From: Myrmaecium sp. VS I D KN 1
Taxonomy: Eukaryota > Ascomycota > Dothideomycetes > Valsariales > Valsariaceae
DNA length: 64,000 nucleotides
Assembly (NCBI GenBank): GCA_019775845.1
Contig: JADQAV010000026.1
Span: 124,001-188,000, forward strand
Direction of reading: 5' to 3'
Shown here: positions 1 through 20,187 of the stretch, in pieces
Layout: every line of letters begins with the position of its first letter
Position numbering within the stretch: position 1 is the first letter of the stretch
The notes under the pieces: generated by a model
Database searches by the model: none
Seen by the model: the letters and a program-made list of their open reading frames with translations, nothing else
Told to the model about the DNA's origin: nothing
Translations under genes and position numbers: made by a program

Positions 1-2765
1 TGCCGAAGATGATATTCCTGTGTAAATGCTGTCTCTACAGCCTCTAGGTATTCAGTCCATACCGAAGCATCTGTGCTCTGAGCCCAGAGCATCTTGAGTT
101 CTTCCAAGTCTGGACGGCTGTTGAATTGTAGAGCAATAGGGAGTCTTGATCGCCAAGTATGCTCAAAATCCTGGGCAGATTTTCTCTGGAGATTCTCAAG
201 CGATCTATAAACGTGCTTCGGTTTCCGGCCGCATTTCCCACAAGAGGTATGGAAACATTCGCTACATCTGCGGATGAGGGACTTCGCAATCTCGGTTCGA
301 GCTTCGCAGACACAGAATCGAGAGCTGCGCTCAGCATCCTCAAGGAGTTCGTGGATATTGATTTCAGGCCCCAAGTCCAAGGAGATCTCCCGAGGTTCCA
401 ACATGTTCTTCACTTCCACCACCTTCCTGGGTTGCTTCTTGATAGTCTTTGAAGAACCACCAGTAGAGGTAACCAGTAGCGGAGTGCCCACAATGAGTGC
501 GGCGAGCATAGCGGCGCCAACAACGGTTGTGGTCATCGCGTTACCGGCTAGATCCATGATGTCTTTGTTGGACTCGGTAGTAAAGCTTATCCTGTCGAGA
601 GGAATTCCTTGCAACATCAGAGTCTCATATCCTATAAGCAGATCTCCGCGGTTCGTTACATATGGAATTCCAGTAGGGCAAATGCATGGGGCAATGCCGA
701 ACGGATGGTGATCATTGCCATAGTCAACATTGTCCTTGAGTTGCCAGATCCGTTGCTTGAAACCTGAATCGTAAGCGCCACGCTCATCGAGCATGTTCCG
801 TAGATGAGCTACGTCGATAAGATCCTTAACGCGCTCGGTCTGTTTATTATGCCATACGCCGTCGGCATATTCTGGCACTAAACATGTGCCATTTCTGTCC
901 CAGCCCGTAAAACACTTGGATTGACCTAAACCGTAATGGGCGCGAACTCGCTCATGTCGAGCTTCACACTTGACCCACGGAGTAGGTTTGCGCTCTTGTA
1001 CTTCATCCCTCGATTGCTTTGCGTTCATGGCACGTTGAAGCTGTACGCGAGGGTCATCCGAAGGAAGCAGGAAGGCGCTGACCGGGGCACTGGCTTTGCG
1101 CTCGAAGGTCTGAACTAAGCTTTGCCATCTAGTAAGGGGATTCTTCAGTTTCCCAGCCGTCCGATCGATACACACCATATAACCGCGCGTACGTGTGTGA
1201 GGAAGATAATAGTTCTTGGTATCAAGCTTCAGATAGGCGGTGTCATAGTTGATCATGTCCCAAGCCTTTTGCATCTCTTTCCACGGTGCATTCGCGACAT
1301 TCTCCTGAACAACAAGCTTTGGTCTAATATAGGATGCGACCTTCAGAAGCGCTCTGAAAGTTATGCCGGACTCGCCATTATCCTTCAGTTCCTTCTTCTG
1401 GTTGTTCAGGTTAGAGAAATCTTTGCAGGATGTTCCTGCAACGATCATGTCGATGTCTCTGGGAATGGGGGCCATAGCTCCGTATACGGTGAAGGCACCT
1501 TGTGTTTCCGCTTCGTCTCTAATCAGTTCCTCGACGTCGCGATAAATGATCTCGGGATGGAAATTCCGTTCGATATAGGCTTGCTTGAATGGCTCTTTCT
1601 CCGCGCTAGCACAGTGTTCGAAACTGAAAGGATCCATTTTCAGGTCTACGAGGGCTTGCTGCACCATTTGAAGTGCAAGTAAGGGAGCCTCTGTCCCTGA
1701 GCATAGCGTCAGAACTCTAAGCGGCTTCTTCATGTTGGAGCTGAGCTTATCAAGTCCATGCTTGACAGCTTTAGCGGTCATGTCTCTGAAGATATCATAG
1801 ATATCCGACATCGGCTCAAGAGAATCGTCAATTGCATTGCTTGATTGGACTTTCAATGGTATGAGCCCTTCTTGTTTCTTCTGCACTGACTTGCTTCCTT
1901 GATCTTTTGCTCCTTTTGATTTCGTTGGCACGGCGTCGTCATCGTCCTCGTCATGTGTCTCTTCTTCACTCTCCTCTAATTCATCAATCTGACTTGCCGA
2001 ATCTTCGTCGATGCTCTCGTCATCTTCACCCATATCGTAAACGCTTGCATTGTCATCTTGGGCTTCATTTGACGCGCTTAGCATCTCTTCATCTGATTGT
2101 TCAGATTCGTCGCTGATCTCTAGGGTCGGTAGCTGAGAGTACCTCACTGGACGGAGATTACGGGTTGGTCGAGAACGCGCGATACTTTCATCAGGGGGCT
2201 TGACCGGGGTTTGGCGGCGCTGGTTCGTGAGCCGGGGCTTGGTAACAAACTGGATTTCATCGGTATCGCTCGCTCCAGCAGGAGTTGCTGTGGTAATAGA
2301 TTCGACAGAGCCCTTATTGGAACCAGTATCCCCAAAAAGCGCACTGGAAGGAGAAGAGGAAGCGGTAGAGCGAGTATCGTTGTCTTCGATAGGGGAGCCT
2401 ACGGTTATTTGAGACAGCTCCTGTGGCAGCTCCGTGAAAGACAGTCTATCCTTCACACCCGCTGGGACTATCGTCGCTTGTCAGCAAAAAAAAAGTCCCA
2501 ATGTAGATATCAGACGAAGAGGTCAACGCTCACTTTCCACGTGTGAAAACGCTGTGCGCTTCGACCGTCGGGGGCCTATGGTCGAAGAAGCTTGACGCTT
2601 CCGTGGGATCATTGCATCGCACTTCTTCCGGCGGGACACATTCACTACCAACTCATACTCGTTATCCTCGGGGTCGGTCTTGTAGATAGTCGTCGTGTCC
2701 TCTCCCAGCACAGACGAGTCAAGTTCATACTCAAATATTGAGAGTCGGGTGCGCTTTGGGGCCAT
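1..2765 (-). CDS. DNMT5: DNMT5-like cytosine-5 DNA methyltransferase, N-terminal part (runs off left edge)
   Basis: The likely product adds methyl groups to cytosine in DNA in the nucleus. Exon 1 is 2765-2534. A 72 nt intron (2533-2462) follows, and one long open exon then runs from 2461 past base 1. The order is a basic N-terminus, an acidic stretch (about residues 190-250), and a C5-methyltransferase domain (about 320-760) with motif I LTLCSGTEAPLLA, motif IV AGTSCKDFSNLN, motif VI VQENV, motif VIII TRTRGY and a closing GNAM. A Cys-rich finger follows at about 785-825 (FCVCEA, then RRCSECFHTSCGKCG). Known DNMT5 proteins carry a zinc finger and then an SNF2 ATPase, which here would lie outside the window. 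Motif IV has Ser-Cys rather than the usual Pro-Cys. The start is the first ATG of exon 1. It shares an 865 bp divergent upstream region with the next gene. Confidence 0.85.
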
Positions 2766-3630
2766 TGTAATTGCTTAAGTAGACATAAGCACGGTCATAA
2801 ACCAACGACCTCTTTGATCGTCCAGGCCGAGGGCAATTGATCTGAAGCTCCGTGGAGAGAATATTGTATACTCAGTCCCAAAACAATAAACGACGGTGGT
2901 AGGTATTTACTTATTACTTGGGCAAACTTGTGTAGGACGGAACGGTAAGACCCTGAACGTGAACAAGACACGCTAGTGATACTAAATAAGCGGTTCCAGC
3001 GGCCCGAGCGATCTGCAGGGTCGGGAGACTGGAGTACGGAGTACGGCCGGTATCCGTACAAGCACTTCTTATACCTGGCTGCCAATGCTCGTAGGCATGT
3101 GTGACTAAGTCTCAAAGTACTACATCAAACGTGGAGTCAAATAAAGTGGAATACGGTGGGACATGGTCACAGTAAACCAGCCTTGGCATGGTGGGATAAT
3201 ATTTTATATGTCGATAACTACGTACAGTACTAATATACAAGCGGACTGTCCTGCTACTCCTAGCCACTGGCAATCGTCCGGTCGTTGGTACGTTTGCGGG
3301 AAATGCGGACATGACGGGATGATCCACAAGACGTTCATATCGGACGCCCTTGTACCGACGGGCCAAGTCGGCTCCGCGAGAAGAGACGGCACCCGTCCCA
3401 AGTAACCCAATCCACAAGCGAACGAGTTTCTTTATGGAGTGGTACTCTATCTTTGATAGGTATTAAGGGACGAGAAGAAGGCTACTAGACTGGCAGGACT
3501 CTTCGACTGAGTAATCCATTTGCGCATGCACCACCGTCCACGGACCGCTATTTATATCTCCCATGTAGCCTGGTTCTCATTCTCAGCCGATCTCAGCATC
3601 AACTTGCTACAACATTAGCGCCCCGTCAAG
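2766..3630. other. divergent intergenic region
   Basis: This region separates the DNMT5-like start (minus) from the 2H-phosphoesterase start (plus), so it should hold both promoters. It contains only short unrelated open frames. I see no repeat, tRNA or strong motif in it. Confidence 0.6.
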
Positions 3631-4685
3631 ATGGCTCAGTATATCGTTGCAAACGTTTATGAGGACCTTAGTGGTGTGTCATCACTCACGTTTGACAATC
3701 CGTACGATGAATTACTCATTAGCTGCCATGATGAGCCCGTAAGTCGCTATTGGGGGACAACGCTGGGGTTTTCTGACAACCTTCAGAATGCGATCCAGAA
3801 CCGATATCAACTGCACCGTGCCACACGCAACGCCCAGCAGAAGGCCAAACTGCTTGATCCAAACTTCTCGGGAGTCACCATCGACCCTATCCTACTTCGC
3901 CTGGTAGATCCGACGGTGGAACCTAACTTTCAGGATCCTCGCCACTGTCTAACCCTCTGGGCTCGTCCGACAACGGGAGTTAAGGCCCTCATCAGGAAGA
4001 TCCAGGAGAAATTACGTGAAGTCGCAACAGGTAAGAGCTCGGCTACCAGAGCCACCAAGATCAACGCTTACGGGCAATAGAAATGTGGTTTCTGCCTCCG
4101 GATAACCTTCATATAACTGCGTTAGAGATTACGCATTCGAAGTCTGAGGCCGAAATCCAAGAATTTGTAGATTCTCTCCAGCCTGTACTGGACAAAGTCA
4201 CCGACTATACATACGAGCATCGGTCCCGCCTCATAAAACCGATGATTGGCTATGATGCCTGCGCGCTGGCTCTGAGTTTTGTCCCGGCTGCTGGGGAGGC
4301 ATTACCCCCGGGTAGAGACAAGGAAGATGATCGCTATACTTACCATCATCTCCGAAGAAATCTATACAGAATCTGCAAAGATGCCGGGGTGAAGGTGGAA
4401 TCACGTTACGTGGTGCCTTCGAGCCATTGCACCATAGGACGCTTCATTCGTAGCCGTGAATTCGAGAAGCCGGATGGAAGCGTCGATTTGGCGCAGATAA
4501 AAAGACTCATAGACAGGATAGAGGAAATCAATGCCTGGCTTCAAGACGAGTTTTGGCCAAAAGGTGATGAGAGGATTAAAGAGGGCGGCGAATGGCTCGT
4601 GGGGGAGGAAAAGGGTTTGGACTGCCGACGGGGTACCCTGTGGTATGGCGATGGCCAGATGATTAGGATAGGGAAAGGATTCTAA
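3631..4685 (+). CDS. 2H phosphoesterase / RNA ligase-cyclic phosphodiesterase-like protein
   Basis: There are two exons, 3631-4030 and 4081-4685, separated by a 50 nt intron, giving 334 residues. The two His-x-Thr motifs that define the 2H phosphoesterase fold are visible: HIT in NLHITALEIT (His about 144) and HCT in SSHCTIGRF (His about 249). Members of this family hydrolyse or form 2',5'- or cyclic phosphodiester bonds in RNA or nucleotides; the substrate here is not predictable. No signal peptide or membrane segment is evident, so a soluble intracellular location is likely. It sits between a DNA methyltransferase gene and MSH2, but nothing in the sequence ties it to methylation or repair. 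The splice is supported because joining Glu (g|aa) to MWFLPP restores a continuous frame before the first HxT. Confidence 0.8.
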
Positions 4686-5046
4686 TGAATCTACTTCAAG
4701 CGTAAAAACACCATCATAATACCTAGTACTCTATTGGCCCAGTAGAAATAGATATATAGAGAAACTTAGTACGTTTGCGATTCAATTCCTAGTACTCAAT
4801 GCTTGACAAGAAAAGACAGTATTACAAATGTACAGTACTAGTAGGAGTAACAATCACAGCATTTATAATTGCTGCCTTAAAGCCTGGTCAGGGTCCGATA
4901 AGATAAGGAAATCCAGTAAGCCACGAGCACGCGTCGCGTTTTCGGCTCAGCACGGCGCTGGCGGCGAGATTTCCCGGAGCTCTGTGACGATAACTCATCA
5001 TCTTCCAGCCATTCGCAACGTCCTCCTTCTACAGTTATTCTCGAAA
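4686..5046. other. MSH2 upstream region
   Basis: This short intergenic stretch holds the 3' end of the phosphoesterase gene and the MSH2 promoter. The pentanucleotide-rich word CCTAGTACTC occurs twice, near 4720 and 4790. An ACGCGT hexamer lies at 4929-4934. There is no gene. Confidence 0.6.
4929..4934 (+). promoter_or_regulatory. MCB-like ACGCGT element upstream of MSH2
   Basis: The palindrome ACGCGT lies about 113 bp before the MSH2 start codon and is followed by CGCG and TTTTCG. In yeasts this hexamer is the MBF binding site that drives G1/S expression of replication and repair genes. The motif itself is seen; its function here is inferred. Confidence 0.4.
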
Positions 5047-7927
5047 ATGGGTTCGCGTCCGGAGCTCAAAGTTGAAGATGAGTCTGGATTCATCCGTTTC
5101 TTTCGAAACCTACCAGACCAGGGCGATGACACTATCCGGATCTTCGATCGAGGCGACTTCTATACAGCTCATGGCGGAGACGCCACATTCATTGCGCGCA
5201 CAGTACTCTCTCCCATAGGTCTTAGCATACTATCAGATCTCTAAAACTATCTTAGGTATATCGGACTACTTCCGTTCTACGTCAATTGGGTCGCGAAGGT
5301 TCTGGTCTCGAGTCGGTAACGCTCTCCGTGACCGTATTCCGTAACTTTCTGCGCGAGGCGCTCTTCAGATTAGGCAAACGGATCGAAATATGGCAGTCTT
5401 CAGGACGGAATAGCTGGAAGGTCGTTAAACAGGCTTCGCCAGGAAATCTCCAAGACATTGAAGAGGAGCTCGGCGGCCAGCTGGAATCCGCACCGATCAT
5501 CCTGGCCGTCAAGGTTTCCGCGAAAGCTTCTGAAGCCAGAATTGTTGGCGTATGCTTTGCTGATGCAAGTGTACGGGAGCTCGGGATCAGCGAATTCCTG
5601 GATAATGACCTATACTCCAATTTCGAATCCCTTCTCATCCAGCTTGGGGTAAAGGAGTGTCTGATCCAGGCAGATAGCCCCAGAAAGGACGTCGAATTGC
5701 AGAAGCTCCGAGCTATAGCTGATAACTGCGGATGTGCTGTGGCAGAAAGAGGATTTGCAGACTTTGGCACAAAGGATGTTGAACAAGACCTGGCCAGGCT
5801 CCTACGCGATGATCGTTCCATTGGAACTCTTCCGCAGACTGGCCTTAAACTGGCAATGGGCTCCGCTGCGGCCTTGATCAAGTACTTAGGGGCTATGTCC
5901 GATCCATCGAACTTTGGCCAATATCAGCTTTACCAACACGATCTGTCGCAGTATATGAAATTGGACGCTGCTGCATTGAAGGCCTTGAATTTGATGCCTG
6001 GCCCAAGGGACGGTTCCAAGACCATGAGCCTTTACGGTCTCCTCAACCACTGCAAGACTCCGGTTGGCAGCCGCTTACTGTCTCAGTGGCTCAAGCAGCC
6101 CTTGATGAATGTCGATGAGATTGAACGCAGACAGCAACTGGTCGAAGCCTTCGTTGTGGACACAGAGCTCAGACAGACTATGCAGGAAGAACATCTCCGG
6201 TCTATACCAGATCTTTACAGGCTTGCAAAGAAGTTTCAACGAAAAATGGCTAATCTGGAAGACGTGGTCAGAGCCTATCAGGTTGCCATACGGTTACCTG
6301 GCTTCCTTGGTACCCTCGAAGCAGTAATGGATGAGCAATACAAAGACCCACTCGAAGCTGAATATACGTCCAAACTGAGGGTGAGTTGACATGATCCTCA
6401 AAGAAAGTGGATGTATGCTTATAGATCTAGGACTATTCGGAAGCTCTTGCGAAATTGCAAGAGATGGTTGAGACTACCGTAGACCTTGATGCGCTCGATA
6501 ATCACGAGTTCATCATTAAGCCTGAGTTTGACGACAGCCTACGCCTTATCAGAAAGAGACTCGATAAGCTGAAGTATGACATGGAGGTCGAGCACAGGAA
6601 GGTTGGCAAAGACCTCAATCAGGACACCGACAAGAAGCTTTTTCTAGAAAACCATAGGGTACATGGATGGTGCTTCCGACTAACTAGGACAGAAGCCGGT
6701 TGTATCCGTAATAAGAGGCAGTACCAGGAATGTTCCACGCAGAAGAACGGCGTTTTCTTCACAACAAGCACTCTGCAAGCACTGCGTCGAGAGTTCGATC
6801 AGTTGTCCGAAAATTACAACCGCACGCAATCCGGACTTGTCAATGAAGTTGTCAATGTCGCCGCATCGTACTGTCCCGTGCTGGAGAAATTGGCTGGTGT
6901 TCTCGGTCACCTTGATGTCATAGTCTCCCTTGCTCATGTTTCCGTCCATGCTCCCACGGCATATGTGCGCCCAAAAATGCATTCACGTGGCACTGGCAAC
7001 ACGATCCTGAAGGAAGCCCGGCATCCTTGTATGGAGATGCAGGACGACGTGTCCTTCATCACGAACGACGTTTCGCTCGTACGCGGAGAATCAGAATTCG
7101 TCATTATCACCGGGCCCAATATGGGGGGTAAATCCACGTATATCCGACAAGTTGGCGTGATTGCGTTGATGGCGCAGATAGGCTGTTTCGTTCCTTGCTC
7201 CGAAGCCGAGCTCACTATCTTCGACAGCATTCTAGCTCGTGTTGGAGCTAGTGACAGCCAGCTCAAGGGCGTGTCCACCTTCATGGCCGAGATGCTGGAA
7301 ACGGCCAACATCCTCAAGTCGGCAACCCGAGAGAGTCTGATTATCATTGACGAACTCGGTCGTGGTACGAGCACATATGATGGCTTCGGTCTAGCCTGGG
7401 CTATCAGCGAACATATCGTGAAGGAGATTGGAGCCTTTGCTCTTTTTGCCACACATTTTCACGAGCTCACTGCGCTTGTGGACACCTACCCGCAGGTGCA
7501 AAACCTCCATGTCGTTGCACACATTGACGAGTCAGCCAGCGGGGAAGACGGTGACAGCAAGAAGAGGGAGGTTACGTTGCTTTACAAGGTCGAGCCGGGT
7601 GTATGCGATCAGAGCTTTGGTATCCACGTCGCAGAACTTGTGCGGTTCCCTCCGAAGGTTATAGCCATGGCCAAGCGCAAGGCAGAAGAGCTGGAAGACT
7701 TTTCGGGAGCCCACCCAGAGCAGTCTGGAGATGCGCCAAAACAACCTTCGAAGGAGGAAGTGGAGCAGGGCAGTAAGCTGCTTAAGGAGGTTCTCCAGCA
7801 GTGGAAAGCGGAGGTTGAGGCGGAGGCGTTAAACAAGCAGCAGCAAGTCGAGAGGATGAGAGAATTGGTCAAGAAGAAGGAAGGGTTGGCCGAGAATCCC
7901 TTCTTCAAATCTCTGAAGGCTTTATGA
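5047..7927 (+). CDS. MSH2: DNA mismatch repair ATPase MSH2
   Basis: MSH2 pairs with MSH6 or MSH3 in the nucleus to recognise mismatches and small loops. The three exons are 5047-5202, 5256-6380 and 6431-7927, with introns of 53 and 50 nt, both in phase 0. They give 925 residues, close to the usual length of about 940. The N-terminal mismatch-binding domain opens with [16 protein letters not shown], and [11 protein letters not shown] follows. The connector and lever regions come next, and the ABC ATPase lies at about 630-840 with Walker [10 protein letters not shown] (about 654) and Walker [14 protein letters not shown] (about 730). FATHFHELT and the helix-turn-helix region follow. The first intron is placed so that [13 protein letters not shown] is restored, a segment conserved in the family. 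I see no disabling change. An MCB-like hexamer lies upstream. Confidence 0.97.
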
Positions 7928-8918
7928 GGCTAGTCTGCCATTTTCTTCAGAATTATCTTTCGGCGACTTTAATGGAGCACGGCGTTTATCAGGATATGGC
8001 ATTGGGTGGGATTCACTTCGTGGTCGTAACAGGCGTCGCGGAGGCAAGTAGGTAGCTTGATGGACTGTTAGAGGCTTTATGTATAACTACATAGGTATGA
8101 CCGTATATTGTGCTATCAATGTTGCGTTGAATTAATCTAGTCTGATAAGCGCAATCGGGCACGATGAAGGTTGGCTTCATCTGTAATAGTGAGCTTACTC
8201 AAGGACGCTATTCTGCAGTAATCATGATGGCGTACTTGGATGTTATCGAAAGCCTCGAGAAATCGTCCTAAGAGACTACCTTCTGGATTAACCAAGCAAA
8301 CATTGCTTCAATAATCAGTCAAACGTCTAGTCCGAGATACTACTTGGTGACGCCCTACCTATTATACATAAACCTATCATAGTCATTTAGACGCCGAAGA
8401 CAGGCAAATCAGGCGGGTATTATGGTATATTTCTGCTACTTGAGTATGGCAGTCAGCCTTCAAAAAGCACAGCCAATGTCTGAAGGTGAACCTAAGAGCG
8501 GAAACCTGAGTGTCAAGCAAGGCTGGCGTGGAATAACGTTAACCGATGTAAGGGAAATTGGCCCCGGCACGGATTCCATTCCTCCGAATTGCCCACATCA
8601 ACATCATCTCGTCAAAGATAGTCTTTCTCACGCAGACTTGCCTGTGTCGCTTCTCCTCCAGTTCGCATAATGGCCGTTGTGTCTTCGTTCCTGCCGGTTG
8701 CTTGTGATTGGGCGGTGTGCTCCTTTTCTTTGCGTCAAGTTCCGATTCTCATAGCGATTTTCACATGTTCTTTGTGTGCCTTCGAGGTCCAATCATCTTT
8801 TCATAGTGATCTCTTTCACATTTCCTCTTTCGTCCATTGAGGCCCAATCATCTTTTTAGAGTGATCTCTTTCACATCTCCTCTTTCGTCCCTTTTGGTTT
8901 CTCAAGAGTGTGGATCCC
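7928..8918. other. intergenic region between MSH2 and the DIM-2-like gene
   Basis: This region contains the MSH2 3' end and the upstream region of the methyltransferase gene. It has no supported gene; the frame at 8422-8670 has no recognisable features. A 52 bp tandem duplication lies at its right end. Confidence 0.6.
8784..8890. repeat. tandem duplication, two 52 bp copies with 55 bp period
   Basis: Copies at 8784-8835 and 8839-8890 share the cores CCAATCATCTTTT and GTGATCTCTTTCACAT followed by CTCTTTCGTCC. They differ at only a few bases. The array ends about 28 bp before the proposed start codon of the DIM-2-like gene, so it lies in its leader or promoter. Confidence 0.8.
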
Positions 8919-11900
8919 ATGAAGAGAAACCAATCTTCCTGTGTCTCAAGCTCATCCGGTCGCATACATCTCAAAAACATGGAGCATATTAGCCATCTAA
9001 CACAAGCTCGACCGCTGGACCATGTTCGTCCTGGTGAACCCACTCACCCAAGATCACAATACGGAGGCTTCGAAACCCCGTTACCAGTTTCCTCTGAAGA
9101 TACCGTCCTCAAAAGTTTCAATGTGCGTACTAAGTCATAAATTTGACCGATGGTGCAGTCTATCTTCGAAGCTCACACTGCATAGAAATTATGGTTTCAA
9201 CGCTCTCGAAGCGAAGACCATGTCATCTTAACGTTGACAGACTTCACGCTATATCGGAGAATCAAGAACGAAATGGAAATGGAGCCACTCAACATGCTTC
9301 GAGCAATCGGCGGCAATGTGCTCCTCTTTGATGGTATCGTGCAATATGAAGGGCGAAAGGCTTACGTTCAAGCCGTCCCCTTTGGGTGCTTGTCCATCGA
9401 TGGATATGATAGTGGCAGCCGGTGTGATATCGAACGCAGCATCTACATCCAGTCCAGTCAAAGTCGCCGTATGAACACCTGGTACCGTCTTGATCAGCCG
9501 GCCCCCGAGTACTACCGGTTCCACTCGGTCTTCCTCTGGCTTGCAGAGCTAGCGCGGTATTTCGTCAACTTTGTGGAGGGTAGACCAGATGTGGATCTTG
9601 ACAGCTTTCAACGTGAATTTTATGACTGGGCCTCTAGGCACGGCAACCCGGACAGGTTCAGGACGTGGGCCGCTTTATATGGGAGTCCCGCAAAGACGGA
9701 CTTTCGTCAAGCGGTCGTCGCGAACATTGAATTTCTCAGGCATGAGCTTTTCAGTGTGACGGAGGAGAGCTGGCGCGACAAGAGACTGGACATGACTCTT
9801 TGGAAAGAATGTTATCATTGCAACATGATTCCGGCGCGGCTTCCTAAAGGAGAAGGGAGAGTGGAGTCATATGAGGCAAAGACAATAATCACTTCGCTCG
9901 TATACGAATGCTTCAAGCATATGTATTTTGCAGATCGATTCGTGGTACGATCGCCTGCAAGCAACATATATCGTTCATGGATGCGAAGAAAGCGACACCT
10001 CGGGTTCTGCGAGACACCTCGGTCTGTGCCTTCCAGACACCACAGAACTTCATTCACCTCCATCCGCGTTGGGGACGTCGTGGCCATATCACGAGACACG
10101 ACGACGGCCTGGAAAGACAATGATGCGTTATGGTATGCATACGTCCAAGGAACCAGCGAATTCAGCGGCAAGGCTATATTACGTGTCATCTGGCTCTACA
10201 GCGCCAGCCAGACGATTATCGGAGACATACCATACCCTGCGGCTAACGAACTATTTTTCTCCGATAATTGCAACTGTGGCGACGATCTGATCTTCGAGGC
10301 TGATGTTGTGTGGAGGGTAAAGGTACAATGGTGCCCGAAAACAACACAACCTACAAACTCAGAGTTCTTCGTACGGCAAAAATATAACTCGGAACCCCAC
10401 ACATTCACTTCCCTTCGCAAGGGTGACTTTATATGTGGTTGTAGAAACTTCAAGTCCGACGCTGAGCAAGTTCGTCGACGCTACCGGGTTGGAGATTCGG
10501 TACTCGTGAAGACAAGTTCCCGCTCGCAACTACTTCAGCCTGTTATAATATGCGGGTTCGCGGATAAGGACGTCGTTGTACGTCTTCTCGTCAGAGCTGT
10601 TGATCACTTTCATGGTCAGCGTCTTGACTTATCGCCCAACGAACTGATTTGGACACGAGAGACGACGTTAATTCCAGCACAAGCGATAGTTCGCAAATGC
10701 TATATACGGATATGCACAGCAGATACCCCGTCAGCGCCGCCTTACAGCGCCAATGGGACTGGCGAGTGCTTCGTTATCTCTTTCGAAGAGCACAGCCAGG
10801 GAAAAGTAAAACCCGTAAGATCCGGTCATCACCTCGACTTTAATCAGGGATTTGATCCCTATACCGTACCTAAACGCAAGCTCGCGGGTCTAAGCCTGTT
10901 TTCCGGGTTTGGAAATTTTGATCACGGCTTGGAAGACTGCGGTGCAGTGGAGCATCGTTGGGTCATCGAGTGGAACAAAGAAGCGATCCATTCCCACAGG
11001 GCTAACAGCAAACGTAAAAGGCGAACGCACTTCTGCCACATGTCTGTTGACGATTATCTCGCGGAAGCGCTCGCTGGCGCTGAAGCCGATAACGCCTGGG
11101 TGGCTAAGATCGGTGATGTCGAGCATATAACTGCTGGAAGTCCCTGTCCAGGGTTTTCTCACCTGCAAAGGGACCAGATTTCGTTGAAGTCAAGGAAGAA
11201 TAGCTCGATGCTTGGATCGCTTTTGTCCTATGTTGACCTATACCGCCCTCTCCATGGTATTCTCGAGAACGTCGTAGCCATGGGTCATTCTATAAGACAC
11301 GCACCGGGTCAGAACGCCTTTCGACAGGTGATCGCAGTACTGGTATATATGGGATACCAGGTACAACACTACGTTATCGACGCATGGTCCTGCGGCAGCC
11401 CTCAATCCCGCTCTCGACTTTTCGTCACCTTCACCGCGCCAGGTCTAGTCCCTATTGCCAAGCCACCCCGATCACATAACCATCCTCCGCAGATAGATGG
11501 GAAGTCTGTGAGTGCTAAGCTTGGATCAGCAGTAAACGGAGAGCTCATTGCCGAACGTGAACATGGGCCCGCGCCATTCCCTCACGTATCAGCTCTGGCT
11601 GCTACTCGTGACCTGCCATATATAGGCGACTCGCGCGTACAAGCATGCGTGCCTTTCCCGGATCATCGGCTTGCCCAAGTCCCCAATACGCTAGCGAGGG
11701 CCACAATCAGCCTGATCCCGGTATCTCCTGCTGGTATGAATCTGAAGAAAGCCATCGAGATTCCTGGGACGATACCCCCGCCCATATTCAACCAGTATCG
11801 CAGGTGTTTCGAGATGACTAAGGTGCCTCGCTCATTTGGCCGGATCGATCCAGTCGGACTGTTCCCTACAATCACTACGCAGTGCGCTCCGCATGATGCT

Positions 11901-12521
11901 TTGCAAGGGACGATCCTGTCCTGGGACCAGCACCGTCCGATCACGATCATGGAAGCCAGGCGAGCCCAGGGAATCCCGGATGAAGATGTGATTATAGGAT
12001 CGACAGCCAGTCAATGGAGACAGATTGGAAACGCGGTTTCCTACGACGTCGCTCTGGCATTGGGGATCCAGCTTCGAGAATCCTGGATCGCAAACCCCTA
12101 TCAAGACATGCTACCAGAGACGAGAAGTCCAGTAGAGGAGCTTGACGTGCAAGCTATTCAGCAAATACTGCACCCGGACAATCAACTCCCTACTATCCGT
12201 CCCGTTGAGCCCCTTTCAAAGGAAGACGGCGACATCACCTTGTCAGAGGAAGAGCTGGTAGTCTTGACACACGTCAAGCGCAAGAGGACGGGCCCAGGGC
12301 TCAAGCGTAAGGAGAGCATGGTCACATCTGTCGAAGCGCATCTGAAGACTGCGTCCCGTCAAACACGGTCTAGTGGACAGGTCGCGAACCTGCGGCATGT
12401 GAACTGGAGTCGAACCTTGGAAAGAGATATCGCAGCAAGGGAGCGCATGAGCATCGAGCTCGTGTTAGATCTACCGAGAGATCTGGGGATGGAGAGCGAT
12501 GCCGAAATGGGTGGTATATGA
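8919..12521 (+). CDS. dim-2: DIM-2-like cytosine-5 DNA methyltransferase
   Basis: The protein is a nuclear C5 DNA methyltransferase of the fungal DIM-2 type, which in Neurospora methylates repeats marked by H3K9me and HP1. The large exon is 9241-12521. A first exon 8919-9126 joined over a 114 nt intron gives 1162 residues, but the 5' end is less certain. Two BAH-like domains (about 346-434, starting VGDVVAISRD, and about 458-560) precede the catalytic domain. That domain has motif I LSLFSGFGNFDHGLE (about 620), motif IV AGSPCPGFSHLQ with catalytic Cys about 705, motif VI ILENVV, motif VIII SPQSRSRLF, and motif X QWRQIGNAVSYDVALALG (about 1000). A basic tail containing KRKRTGPGLKRK follows. 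The BAH pair and length favour DIM-2 over RID/Masc1. The catalytic motifs look intact. Confidence 0.87.
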
Positions 12522-13048: not shown

Positions 13049-14087
13049 ATGGACGCTTTAGTCTCCCACTACAGTCGGACCAGGCACGAAGAGGAAGGTT
13101 ACACTCCAGAGGAGCAGCAAGAGCTCGTAGAGATTACGCCTCCGCTATCCCTCAAGTTCGCCCTTCCTCCCATCGCACAGGTATGCGCTCAGTATCCCGG
13201 TATCATCATCCAGCTGTTGCATGTGCTGATTCACTGGCCGCCAGCCCTCGTCATGGCTCCGAGCAATGACGGACGACTACTCCAACCCGAACTGTCCCAT
13301 TAAGATCGCGCACGGTACGACGACGCTCGCTTTCAGGTTCCAAGGCGGGATCATCGTGGCGACCGACTCCCGTGCCACCGCGGGCAACTGGATAGCGAGT
13401 CAGACGGTCAAGAAGGTCATCGAGATCAATAACTGCTTGCTGGGAACGATGGCCGGTGGTGCGGCGGTAAGGAACCCTACTACGAGTAACGACGTCGAGG
13501 GTTCTGTAGGGACGCTGACATTTGTGTGGAATAGGACTGTCAATACTGGCTCGCATATCTAGGCATGCAGTGCCGCCTGCATGAACTCAGACACAAGCGC
13601 CGCATCTCCGTTGCGGCCGCATCCAAGATCCTGGCCAACTTGGTCTACTCTTACAAGGGCTACGGCTTGAGCATGGTAAGGCCCCATTCAACAGGCAGCT
13701 GTCTATAATGGGCTCTAACTTGTTTTTTAGGGTACTATGTGTGCCGGTGTGACGCCGCAGGAAGGACCGGCCCTCTACTACATCGACAGTGACGGAACCC
13801 GCCTGGCAGGCAACCTCTTCTGTGTTGGCTCTGGTCAGACGTTCGCCTACGGCGTGCTCGATGCGGAGTACCGCTACGACCTCAGCGAGGAGGATGCGCT
13901 CGAGCTCGGTCGCCGCTCGATCCTTGCCGCCACCCACCGTGACGCTTACTCCGGTGGCTACATCAACCTGTACCACGTCAAGGAGGACGGCTGGGTGAAG
14001 CACGGCTTCAACGACACAAATCCCATCTTCTGGAAGACGAAGCTGGAAAAGGGCGAGTTTTCCAACGTCACCGCGGATCTGGAGTAG
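13049..14087 (+). CDS. PRE2: 20S proteasome subunit beta5 (chymotrypsin-like)
   Basis: This is the beta5 catalytic subunit of the 20S core, which cleaves after hydrophobic residues. The exons are 13049-13180, 13245-13466, 13535-13675 and 13731-14087, giving 283 residues. An N-terminal propeptide of about 68 residues ends at HG|TTTLAF; autocleavage at this Gly-Thr exposes the catalytic Thr (about 69). Family landmarks follow: [20 protein letters not shown] and [13 protein letters not shown], the last rebuilt across intron 2. [16 protein letters not shown] and GTMCAGVTP come next, then [11 protein letters not shown]. Introns are 64, 68 and 55 nt, and all lie in phase 0. The gene is transcribed toward the RED-like gene and converges with it over 350 bp. 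Confidence 0.96.
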
Positions 14088-14437
14088 GTGCCAAAGGGTA
14101 TTGTGGGCTTACGGGGACGATACGTCGGGGTTCATTCCGTCTATAGAACGAGATGTCAGGAATGAATGCGACACGATTATGCAAGTGAAACTTGTGGCAT
14201 CAGATGTTTATCCGGTTGCGCTTTATGATTGCTGTTCTTTTGTAGGAGCTACTGAGGGTGAGGGACGATAGCTTCCACCGGTAGAAAACCGTATTTCGTT
14301 ATGATACGGAATTCAATACAACGGCGCAGTACCTCGATCGATTACTATTTGCATTGGGATATCATCTTAATCATCACAAACCGTCGCCTCCTCTCAAAAG
14401 CGTAGCAAAACCTCCGACCTTCGTCTCCAGCTCCCGC
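14088..14437. other. convergent 3' intergenic region
   Basis: This 350 bp stretch lies between the stop codons of PRE2 (plus) and the RED-like gene (minus). It is expected to hold both 3' UTRs. No other feature is seen. Confidence 0.6.
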
Positions 14438-19676: not shown

Positions 19677-20187
19677 ATATTCTTGCTTACAAGTGATCGC
19701 GGATTTTGGCGGATTTTGCCGCAACTCGAAAAAAACTAGTTTAGTAGGGGAATGGCCAGAGATCTATATAAAAGAACCATACAGCGCCACCGCGTAATAA
19801 TATAAATCTATAAAATATATAGCTTAAAGTATATAATAGGAAAAAGCGTATCTTATAATATAGAATTTATATATAAAAAAGTAGAGGTTATAATAATATT
19901 CTTAGAAAAGGAGTTTTTTCTTATTTTTTACCCCTTAAAAACTTAAAATTCTTAGATACCCCTTTTCTTTATAATAATAAGAGGAGAACCTTTATAAAAT
20001 CTATATTAAAATAAACGGCTTTTCTTATTCTATACTTTAAGTTATATATTTTATAGATTAATATTATTATATAGCGGTACTACGTGGTTCTTTTATATCG
20101 ATCTTCTGGCTATTCCTCTTACCTAACCTTTTTTTCGAGTTACGGCAAAATCCGCTAAAATCCGCGATCACTTGTAAGCAAGAATAT
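19677..20187. mobile_element. MITE-like fold-back element with long terminal inverted repeats
   Basis: The 511 bp element is AT-rich and palindromic. Its outermost 59 bases (from 19677, beginning ATATTCTTGCTTACAAGTGA) are repeated inverted at 20129-20187 with two mismatches, both transitions. Similarity between the arms continues inward for roughly 150 bases more (for example TATAAAAGAACCA against TGGTTCTTTTATA) with more differences. It carries no open frame, so it must be non-autonomous. The ends may include a TA duplication, but the border cannot be fixed because the repeat itself starts ATAT. Family assignment (Tc1/mariner-derived or another fold-back type) is open. Confidence 0.85.

What the first reader, a model, noticed from the sequence alone, without database searches (positions are those of the whole stretch)
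1..12521. Two different DNA methyltransferase genes flank MSH2 within 10 kb
A DNMT5-like and a DIM-2-like cytosine methyltransferase lie about 6 kb apart, separated only by a 2H phosphoesterase gene and MSH2. In known systems DNMT5 maintains methylation and DIM-2 installs it, and MSH2 inspects hemimodified or mismatched DNA. Physical linkage of such genes is unusual. It could reflect co-regulation, a shared ancient linkage block or coincidence.
Basis: partly seen in the sequence, partly recalled or inferred. Interest (0 to 1): 0.75.

Follow-up and report, generated by a model that had tools for sequence, protein, structure and literature searches.

The report
Two DNA methyltransferase genes beside MSH2
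In this fungus the genes for two different DNA-methylating enzymes sit about 6 kb apart with a mismatch-repair gene between them, most likely a surviving piece of an old chromosome neighbourhood rather than a purpose-built gene cluster.

Summary
Window 1-12521 holds a DNMT5 gene (minus strand, running about 3.6 kb beyond the left edge), a small gene with 2H-phosphoesterase-like motifs, MSH2 and DIM-2. Sequence comparison settles the identities: Cryptococcus DNMT5 (E 6e-128 and 8e-140), 9bap, taken to be Neurospora DIM2 (488 bits, best DNMT1 107), human MSH2 (490 bits, next MutS 210). A third, RID-like methyltransferase lies on another contig. No relative's sequence could be fetched, so conservation rests on published locus tags. 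Neurospora MSH2 and dim-2 are NCU02230 and NCU02247. In Magnaporthe MGG_00889 (DIM-2 by recall) and an MSH gene printed 'MoMSH1', MGG_00879, are 10 tags apart. Zymoseptoria dim2 and dnmt5 share chromosome 6. This favours an old, loosening linkage block. Against it, a 1,239-genome study finds the Dim2 locus poorly conserved, and a Monilinia paper names other msh-2 neighbours. Co-regulation finds no support, though the promoter scan is weak. Retroelements elsewhere have lost nearly all CpA, a strong RIP signature. Verdict: real, probably ancestral linkage, of modest interest.

The parts
1..2765 (-). DNMT5 gene, 5' part (N-terminal tail and methyltransferase domain); continues about 3.6 kb or more left of the window into the SNF2 part
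   Evidence: PF00145; C. neoformans protein 7r76 E 6.1e-128 for this part and 7.6e-140 for the part outside the window; SNF2 PF00176
2766..3630 (.). Divergent intergenic region between DNMT5 and the 2H-phosphoesterase-like gene, about 0.86 kb
   Evidence: gene starts; no MCB/SCB-type box found in 2767-3630
3631..4685 (+). 2H-phosphoesterase-like gene, exons 3631-3738, 3787-4030, 4081-4685, 318 aa; one place found in the genome
   Evidence: splice sites read; HxT motifs by eye; weak LigT match; one place in own genome for its last exon
4929..4939 (.). ACGCGT (MCB) overlapping TCGCGT, about 118 bp upstream of the MSH2 start
   Evidence: ACGCGT occurs 12 times in the 64-kb window, so one here may be chance
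5047..7927 (+). MSH2, exons 5047-5202, 5256-6380, 6431-7927, 925 aa
   Evidence: MutS domains I-V; human MSH2 490 bits against MSH3 193 and MSH6 175 (last exon as query); splice sites
8784..8890 (.). 55-bp unit repeated 1.9 times just upstream of DIM-2
8919..12521 (+). DIM-2, exon 1 8919-9122, intron 9123-9185, exon 2 9186-12521
   Evidence: 9bap E 6.5e-145; DUF7893 and PF00145 over cut-off, BAH just under it (30.2 against 30.8 bits); exon 1 and intron placed by eye

Best explanation
The cluster is a remnant of an ancestral chromosome neighbourhood of filamentous ascomycetes. DIM-2 and MSH2 (more confidently) and DNMT5 (less confidently) already lay in one region in the ancestor. Rearrangement has spread them apart in lineages such as Neurospora and Magnaporthe, and gene loss removed DIM-2 from most Eurotiomycetes and DNMT5 from most Sordariomycetes, so the set is often broken. 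Here all survive at close range. Each protein is taken to work as its family does elsewhere: DIM-2 methylates DNA in H3K9me3/HP1 heterochromatin, DNMT5 maintains CG methylation, MSH2 repairs mismatches. The neighbourhood itself needs no shared function. Shown here: the identities, the layout and a strong RIP footprint in the genome. Taken from the literature: the gene tags, the losses and the functions. Inferred: the ancestral linkage.
For: N. crassa MSH2 = NCU02230 and dim-2 = NCU02247. M. oryzae methyltransferase MGG_00889, the DIM-2 gene by my recall, and MSH-family gene MGG_00879. Native dim2 on chromosome 6 and dnmt5 = Zt_chr6_00685 in Z. tritici. A survey of 1,239 genomes says Dnmt5 lies in mostly conserved loci, Dim2 was lost in most Eurotiomycetes and Dnmt5 in most Sordariomycetes. 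Functions: DIM2 needs H3K9me3 and HP1 (abstract); Dnmt5 as CG maintenance enzyme (passages).
Against: The same survey says the Dim2 locus is poorly conserved across fungi. A Monilinia paper names gh2, a tRNA m1G methyltransferase, smr1 and pks12 around msh-2 and names no DNA methyltransferase there (legend only, figure not seen). The Magnaporthe gene is printed as MoMSH1, not MSH2. Tag distance is a proxy for physical distance, and I chose the Neurospora and Magnaporthe tags from memory before searching. No direct case of DNMT5 beside MSH2 was found outside this window. In V. dahliae, which has both enzymes, Dnmt5 is reported to contribute little, so the maintenance role may not carry over.
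Confidence: 0.6

Rival explanations
1. Coincidence: rearrangement in this lineage happened to bring the genes together.
Against: Tag proximity of dim-2 and an MSH gene in two other genera; shared chromosome of dim2 and dnmt5 in Z. tritici.
Confidence: 0.22
2. Functional cluster: DNMT5, MSH2 and DIM-2 are kept together because joint S-phase expression or shared chromatin state is useful, linking methylation upkeep with mismatch repair behind the fork.
For: DNMT5 and the 2H-like gene are divergent across 0.86 kb; MSH2 has an MCB box; the five frames measured in the four genes have GC3 0.53-0.60, while 11 of 12 other frames have 0.62-0.92 and SNF5 has 0.60 (a thirteenth, RPL18, was dropped because I had given it a wrong frame with 7 stops).
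Against: No MCB/SCB-type box in the DNMT5/2H-like divergent region or upstream of DIM-2, although at 12 ACGCGT per 64 kb few would be expected there anyway; no paper in the library holds both 'MSH2' and 'DNMT5' in those spellings; many fungi lack one of the two enzymes.
Confidence: 0.15

Closest known systems
Neurospora crassa dim-2 / msh-2 region (NCU02247 / NCU02230)
   Same: DIM-2 and MSH2 orthologues close by locus tag
   Different: 17 tags apart rather than neighbours; N. crassa has lost Dnmt5
Magnaporthe oryzae MGG_00889 / MGG_00879
   Same: a DNA methyltransferase (DIM-2 by my recall) and an MSH-family gene 10 tags apart
   Different: MSH gene named MoMSH1 in print; the paper found only two DNA methyltransferase genes
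Zymoseptoria tritici chromosome 6 dim2 and dnmt5
   Same: both methyltransferases on one chromosome
   Different: distance between them and position of MSH2 not known from the passages seen
C. neoformans DNMT5 (7r76)
   Same: methyltransferase and SNF2 parts align
   Different: no chromodomain match here; Verticillium Dnmt5 is also reported to lack that N-terminal domain

Membership tests
DIM-2 | closer to N. crassa DIM2 than to DNMT1 over RFTS-like, BAH and methyltransferase parts | tested here: met
   487.8 bits against 107.3 for the best DNMT1; that 9bap is N. crassa DIM2 follows from residue numbers matching the DIM2 paper with offset 2
DIM-2 | catalytic PCPG cysteine and ENV motif | tested here: met
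   C926 and P925 equivalents kept; GILENV in the frame
DIM-2 | H3K9me3 cages of BAH1 and RFTS | tested here: inconclusive
   BAH1 W571, W581, W609, Y611 all kept, D615 to Q; RFTS Y185 to H, W261 to Y, Y273 to W, E271 to N (residues)
DIM-2 | N-terminal HP1-binding I/PxVxL-type segment | tested here: inconclusive
   no clear match seen by eye in the predicted N-terminus (frames printed; motif); the gene start is uncertain
DIM-2 | DNA-contact residues needed in N. crassa | tested here: inconclusive
   S930, T1164, T1166, T1167, D1173 kept; Q941 to S, R1175 to L, R1145 to E and Y201 to K (the last two in uncertain alignment); T1100, Y1102, R1039, R1043 and R1104 fell outside the rows used; family-wide variation unknown
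DNMT5 | methyltransferase domain followed by SNF2 ATPase in one frame | tested here: met
   2026-codon frame, PF00145, PF00176, 7r76 over both halves
DNMT5 | RING finger | tested here: inconclusive
   weak RNF4 match E 3.8e-4; simple RING patterns did not match
DNMT5 | CG maintenance activity on hemimethylated DNA | not testable with these tools
   needs biochemistry or bisulfite data
MSH2 | best match MSH2 among MutS homologues; other MutS genes of the genome elsewhere | tested here: met
   (8 MutS_V matches in 6 genes, the window's one the best; the other five were not typed)
RID (gene on C4) | C5 methyltransferase domain without BAH, with PVC and EQT motifs (recalled marks) | tested here: inconclusive
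   PF00145 as the only family at E below 0.01, motifs PVC and EQT in the frame; no RID structure or sequence was at hand to compare
2H phosphoesterase | two HxT motifs and the 2H fold | tested here: inconclusive
   motifs present by eye; LigT E 0.094; no usable model; no informative PDB sequence match
Ancestral linkage block | same gene neighbours in several related genera | tested here: inconclusive
   only published tags; sequence searches found no relatives

The most novel reading that the evidence does not exclude
DNMT5, MSH2 and DIM-2 form a selected gene cluster in those filamentous ascomycetes that keep all three, joining de novo methylation, its maintenance and mismatch handling under one chromatin or cell-cycle control, with DIM-2 here altered in its DNA-reading residues.
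Probability: 0.1. Interest if true: 0.7.

Novelty: new member of a known kind. Interest (0 to 1): 0.38.

Why it matters
If the linkage is ancestral, it gives a positional marker for true DIM-2 and DNMT5 orthologues and for dating their repeated losses. A fungus with a RID-like enzyme, DIM-2 and DNMT5 together, and with a very strong RIP footprint, is also a useful place to ask what maintenance methylation adds to RIP. The linkage alone does not show a shared function.

Tried and rejected
Relatives: the search for related loci with DIM-2, DNMT5 and MSH2 in viral contigs and DNMT5 in genome contigs gave no relative; these collections hold viruses and prokaryotes, so this says nothing about fungi. 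The own-genome service offers no relatives and no file for this genome.

Paper searches that found nothing on the point: at least five of MSH2, DIM2, DNMT5, gene order, fungus, methyltransferase (0 papers); MSH2 with FGSG_107; MSH2 with DNMT5 (the spelling msh-2 is not covered by that search); Neurospora neighbour tags with proteasome or primase. dim-2 with msh-2 gave 2 papers: the Monilinia paper used here, which has no mention of DNMT5 in its main text, and one that has msh-2 only in its reference list. So the DNMT5-MSH2-DIM-2 adjacency was not seen in print by searches; that is a statement about this library only.

Shared S-phase control: only MSH2 has an MCB box among the four intergenic stretches scanned; with ACGCGT at 12 per 64 kb neither its presence there nor its absence elsewhere is strong evidence, so this reading was only slightly marked down. 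RIP of the cluster itself: two intergenic stretches pass the classical RIP thresholds (thresholds recalled), but 63 of 636 sliding windows of the whole window do so too, so this was dropped. The organism was not identified.

Full report
What is there. The window is G000:C17:124001-188000 of an unnamed 25.66-Mb genome in 66 contigs. From left to right: DNMT5 (minus), a 2H-phosphoesterase-like gene (plus), MSH2 (plus), DIM-2 (plus), then a proteasome beta subunit and further genes such as a polyprenyl synthetase, primase small subunit, eIF2B epsilon and SNF5. DNMT5 extends left of the window; its main frame is 2026 codons.

Identities. DIM-2: phmmer against the PDB chains puts 9bap first (487.8 bits, E 6.5e-145) and DNMT1 far behind (107.3 bits). 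The residue numbers of 9bap fit those given for Neurospora DIM2 in PMC11315935 (abstract, sections 8, 11 and 12 read) with an offset of two, which is why I take it to be that protein. DNMT5: the chain filed as 'DNA repair protein Rad8' (7r76; that this is C. neoformans DNMT5 is my recall and fits its layout) is the only PDB match of the methyltransferase half and the best of two for the SNF2 half. MSH2: human MSH2 490 bits, bacterial MutS 210, MSH3 193, MSH6 175. The third methyltransferase, on C4, has PF00145 and shows PVC and EQT where DIM-2 has PC and ENV; that these are RID/Masc1 marks is my recall. No DNMT1-RFD match was found, but that search had no positive control.

Is the linkage old? 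No fungal sequence could be fetched, so I used locus tags in papers. N. crassa MSH2 is NCU02230 in a table of PMC4226480 (passage) and dim-2 is NCU02247 in a table of PMC5144970 (passage): 17 tags apart among roughly ten thousand genes (recalled), about a 0.35% chance by my arithmetic. In M. oryzae the methyltransferase genes are MGG_00889 and MGG_02795 (PMC4338423 passage; that MGG_00889 is the DIM-2 one is recalled), and MGG_00879 is an MSH-family gene printed as MoMSH1 (PMC9332457 passage): 10 tags apart. I recalled these tags before searching and searched for them, so they are not a random sample of species. In Z. tritici the native dim2 is on chromosome 6 and dnmt5 is Zt_chr6_00685 (PMC8016269 passages). 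In V. dahliae Dnmt5 is VDAG_JR2_Chr1g14260 and MSH2 is VDAG_02253 in another strain's numbering, which cannot be compared.

Against it. PMC12543289 (section 7 read whole, passages elsewhere) reports across 1,239 genomes that Rid1 and Dnmt5 lie in mostly conserved loci but Dim2 does not. Its measure looks 10 genes either way, so a 17-tag distance would not count. PMC8959702 (passages) names gh2, a tRNA m1G methyltransferase, smr1 and pks12 near msh-2 in Monilinia; unnamed genes may include others. So linkage has at least loosened in several lineages. How rare the pair is in one genome is disputed in print: the abstract of PMC8091789 says most ascomycetes encode both Dim2 and Dnmt5 (listing), while PMC12543289 reports class-wide losses and PMC9676040 finds no Dim-2 in any Aspergillus (passage).

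Co-regulation. ACGCGT occurs once before MSH2 (4929) and in none of the other three intergenic stretches scanned; a looser WCGCGW match lies downstream of DIM-2 (12875). At 12 ACGCGT in 64 kb, these counts are close to what chance gives. The frames of the four genes have GC3 0.53-0.60; 11 of 12 other frames have 0.62-0.92 and SNF5 0.60 (RPL18 dropped, wrong frame). That says more about the neighbourhood than about regulation.

Is the pathway used? The genome has one chromo-shadow match (HP1-like), one Pre-SET match (DIM-5-like) and one SRA match. A reverse-transcriptase search gave 39 matches, a lower bound: 4 on C50, which looks mitochondrial (three with TGA stops only, one with none; CpA normal in the two measured), and 35 elsewhere, of which 34 carry TAG or TAA stops. 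In 14 loci measured (10 brought, 4, out of those 35 matches), GC is 0.24-0.33 and CpA observed/expected 0.00-0.10, while CpC and CpT are in excess. CpG is 0.72-1.13 of expectation in 11 of 14 and 0.45-0.47 in three (L011, L018, L034). This is RIP of nearly complete CpA specificity. It shows that RIP has acted in this genome; it does not show which enzyme does it, nor that cytosine methylation is present now.

DIM-2 details. The BAH1 cage for H3K9me3 is intact in its four aromatic residues; the RFTS cage keeps two aromatic residues of three. Several residues that N. crassa DIM2 needs in vitro are kept, but the Arg that pries DNA apart (R1175) is Leu and Q941 is Ser; R1145 and Y201 also differ in less certain alignment. 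One pairwise alignment cannot tell whether this is usual in the family.

Conclusion. The most economical account is an old linkage block, reasonably supported for DIM-2 with MSH2 and only suggested for DNMT5. A functional cluster is possible but unsupported.

Noticed in passing
L011-L020, L032-L035 (other contigs of the same genome): Retroelement loci have lost nearly all CpA/TpG (observed/expected 0.00-0.10 in 14 of 14 measured) with CpC and CpT in excess: extreme, CpA-specific RIP.
   Followed up: partly
L011, L018, L034: Three of 14 RIP-marked loci also have CpG at half of expectation (0.45-0.47) while the other 11 have 0.72-1.13; could mark places with long-lasting CG methylation.
   Followed up: partly
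window 19677-20187: AT-rich element of about 0.5 kb with 59-nt terminal inverted repeats, 97% complementary: looks like a MITE, partly CpA-depleted.
   Followed up: partly
window 8784-8890: 55-bp tandem duplication just upstream of DIM-2.
   Followed up: no
window 9186-12521: DIM-2 has Leu at the place of the DNA-intercalating Arg 1175 and Ser at Gln 941 of N. crassa DIM2; changing either abolished activity there.
   Followed up: partly
L031 (C18:138252-138677): An SRA-domain match is present although no DNMT1-RFD domain was found (the negative lacks a control).
   Followed up: no
window about 13230-14108: A proteasome beta-subunit gene follows DIM-2 directly; could serve as a further synteny marker.
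   Followed up: no
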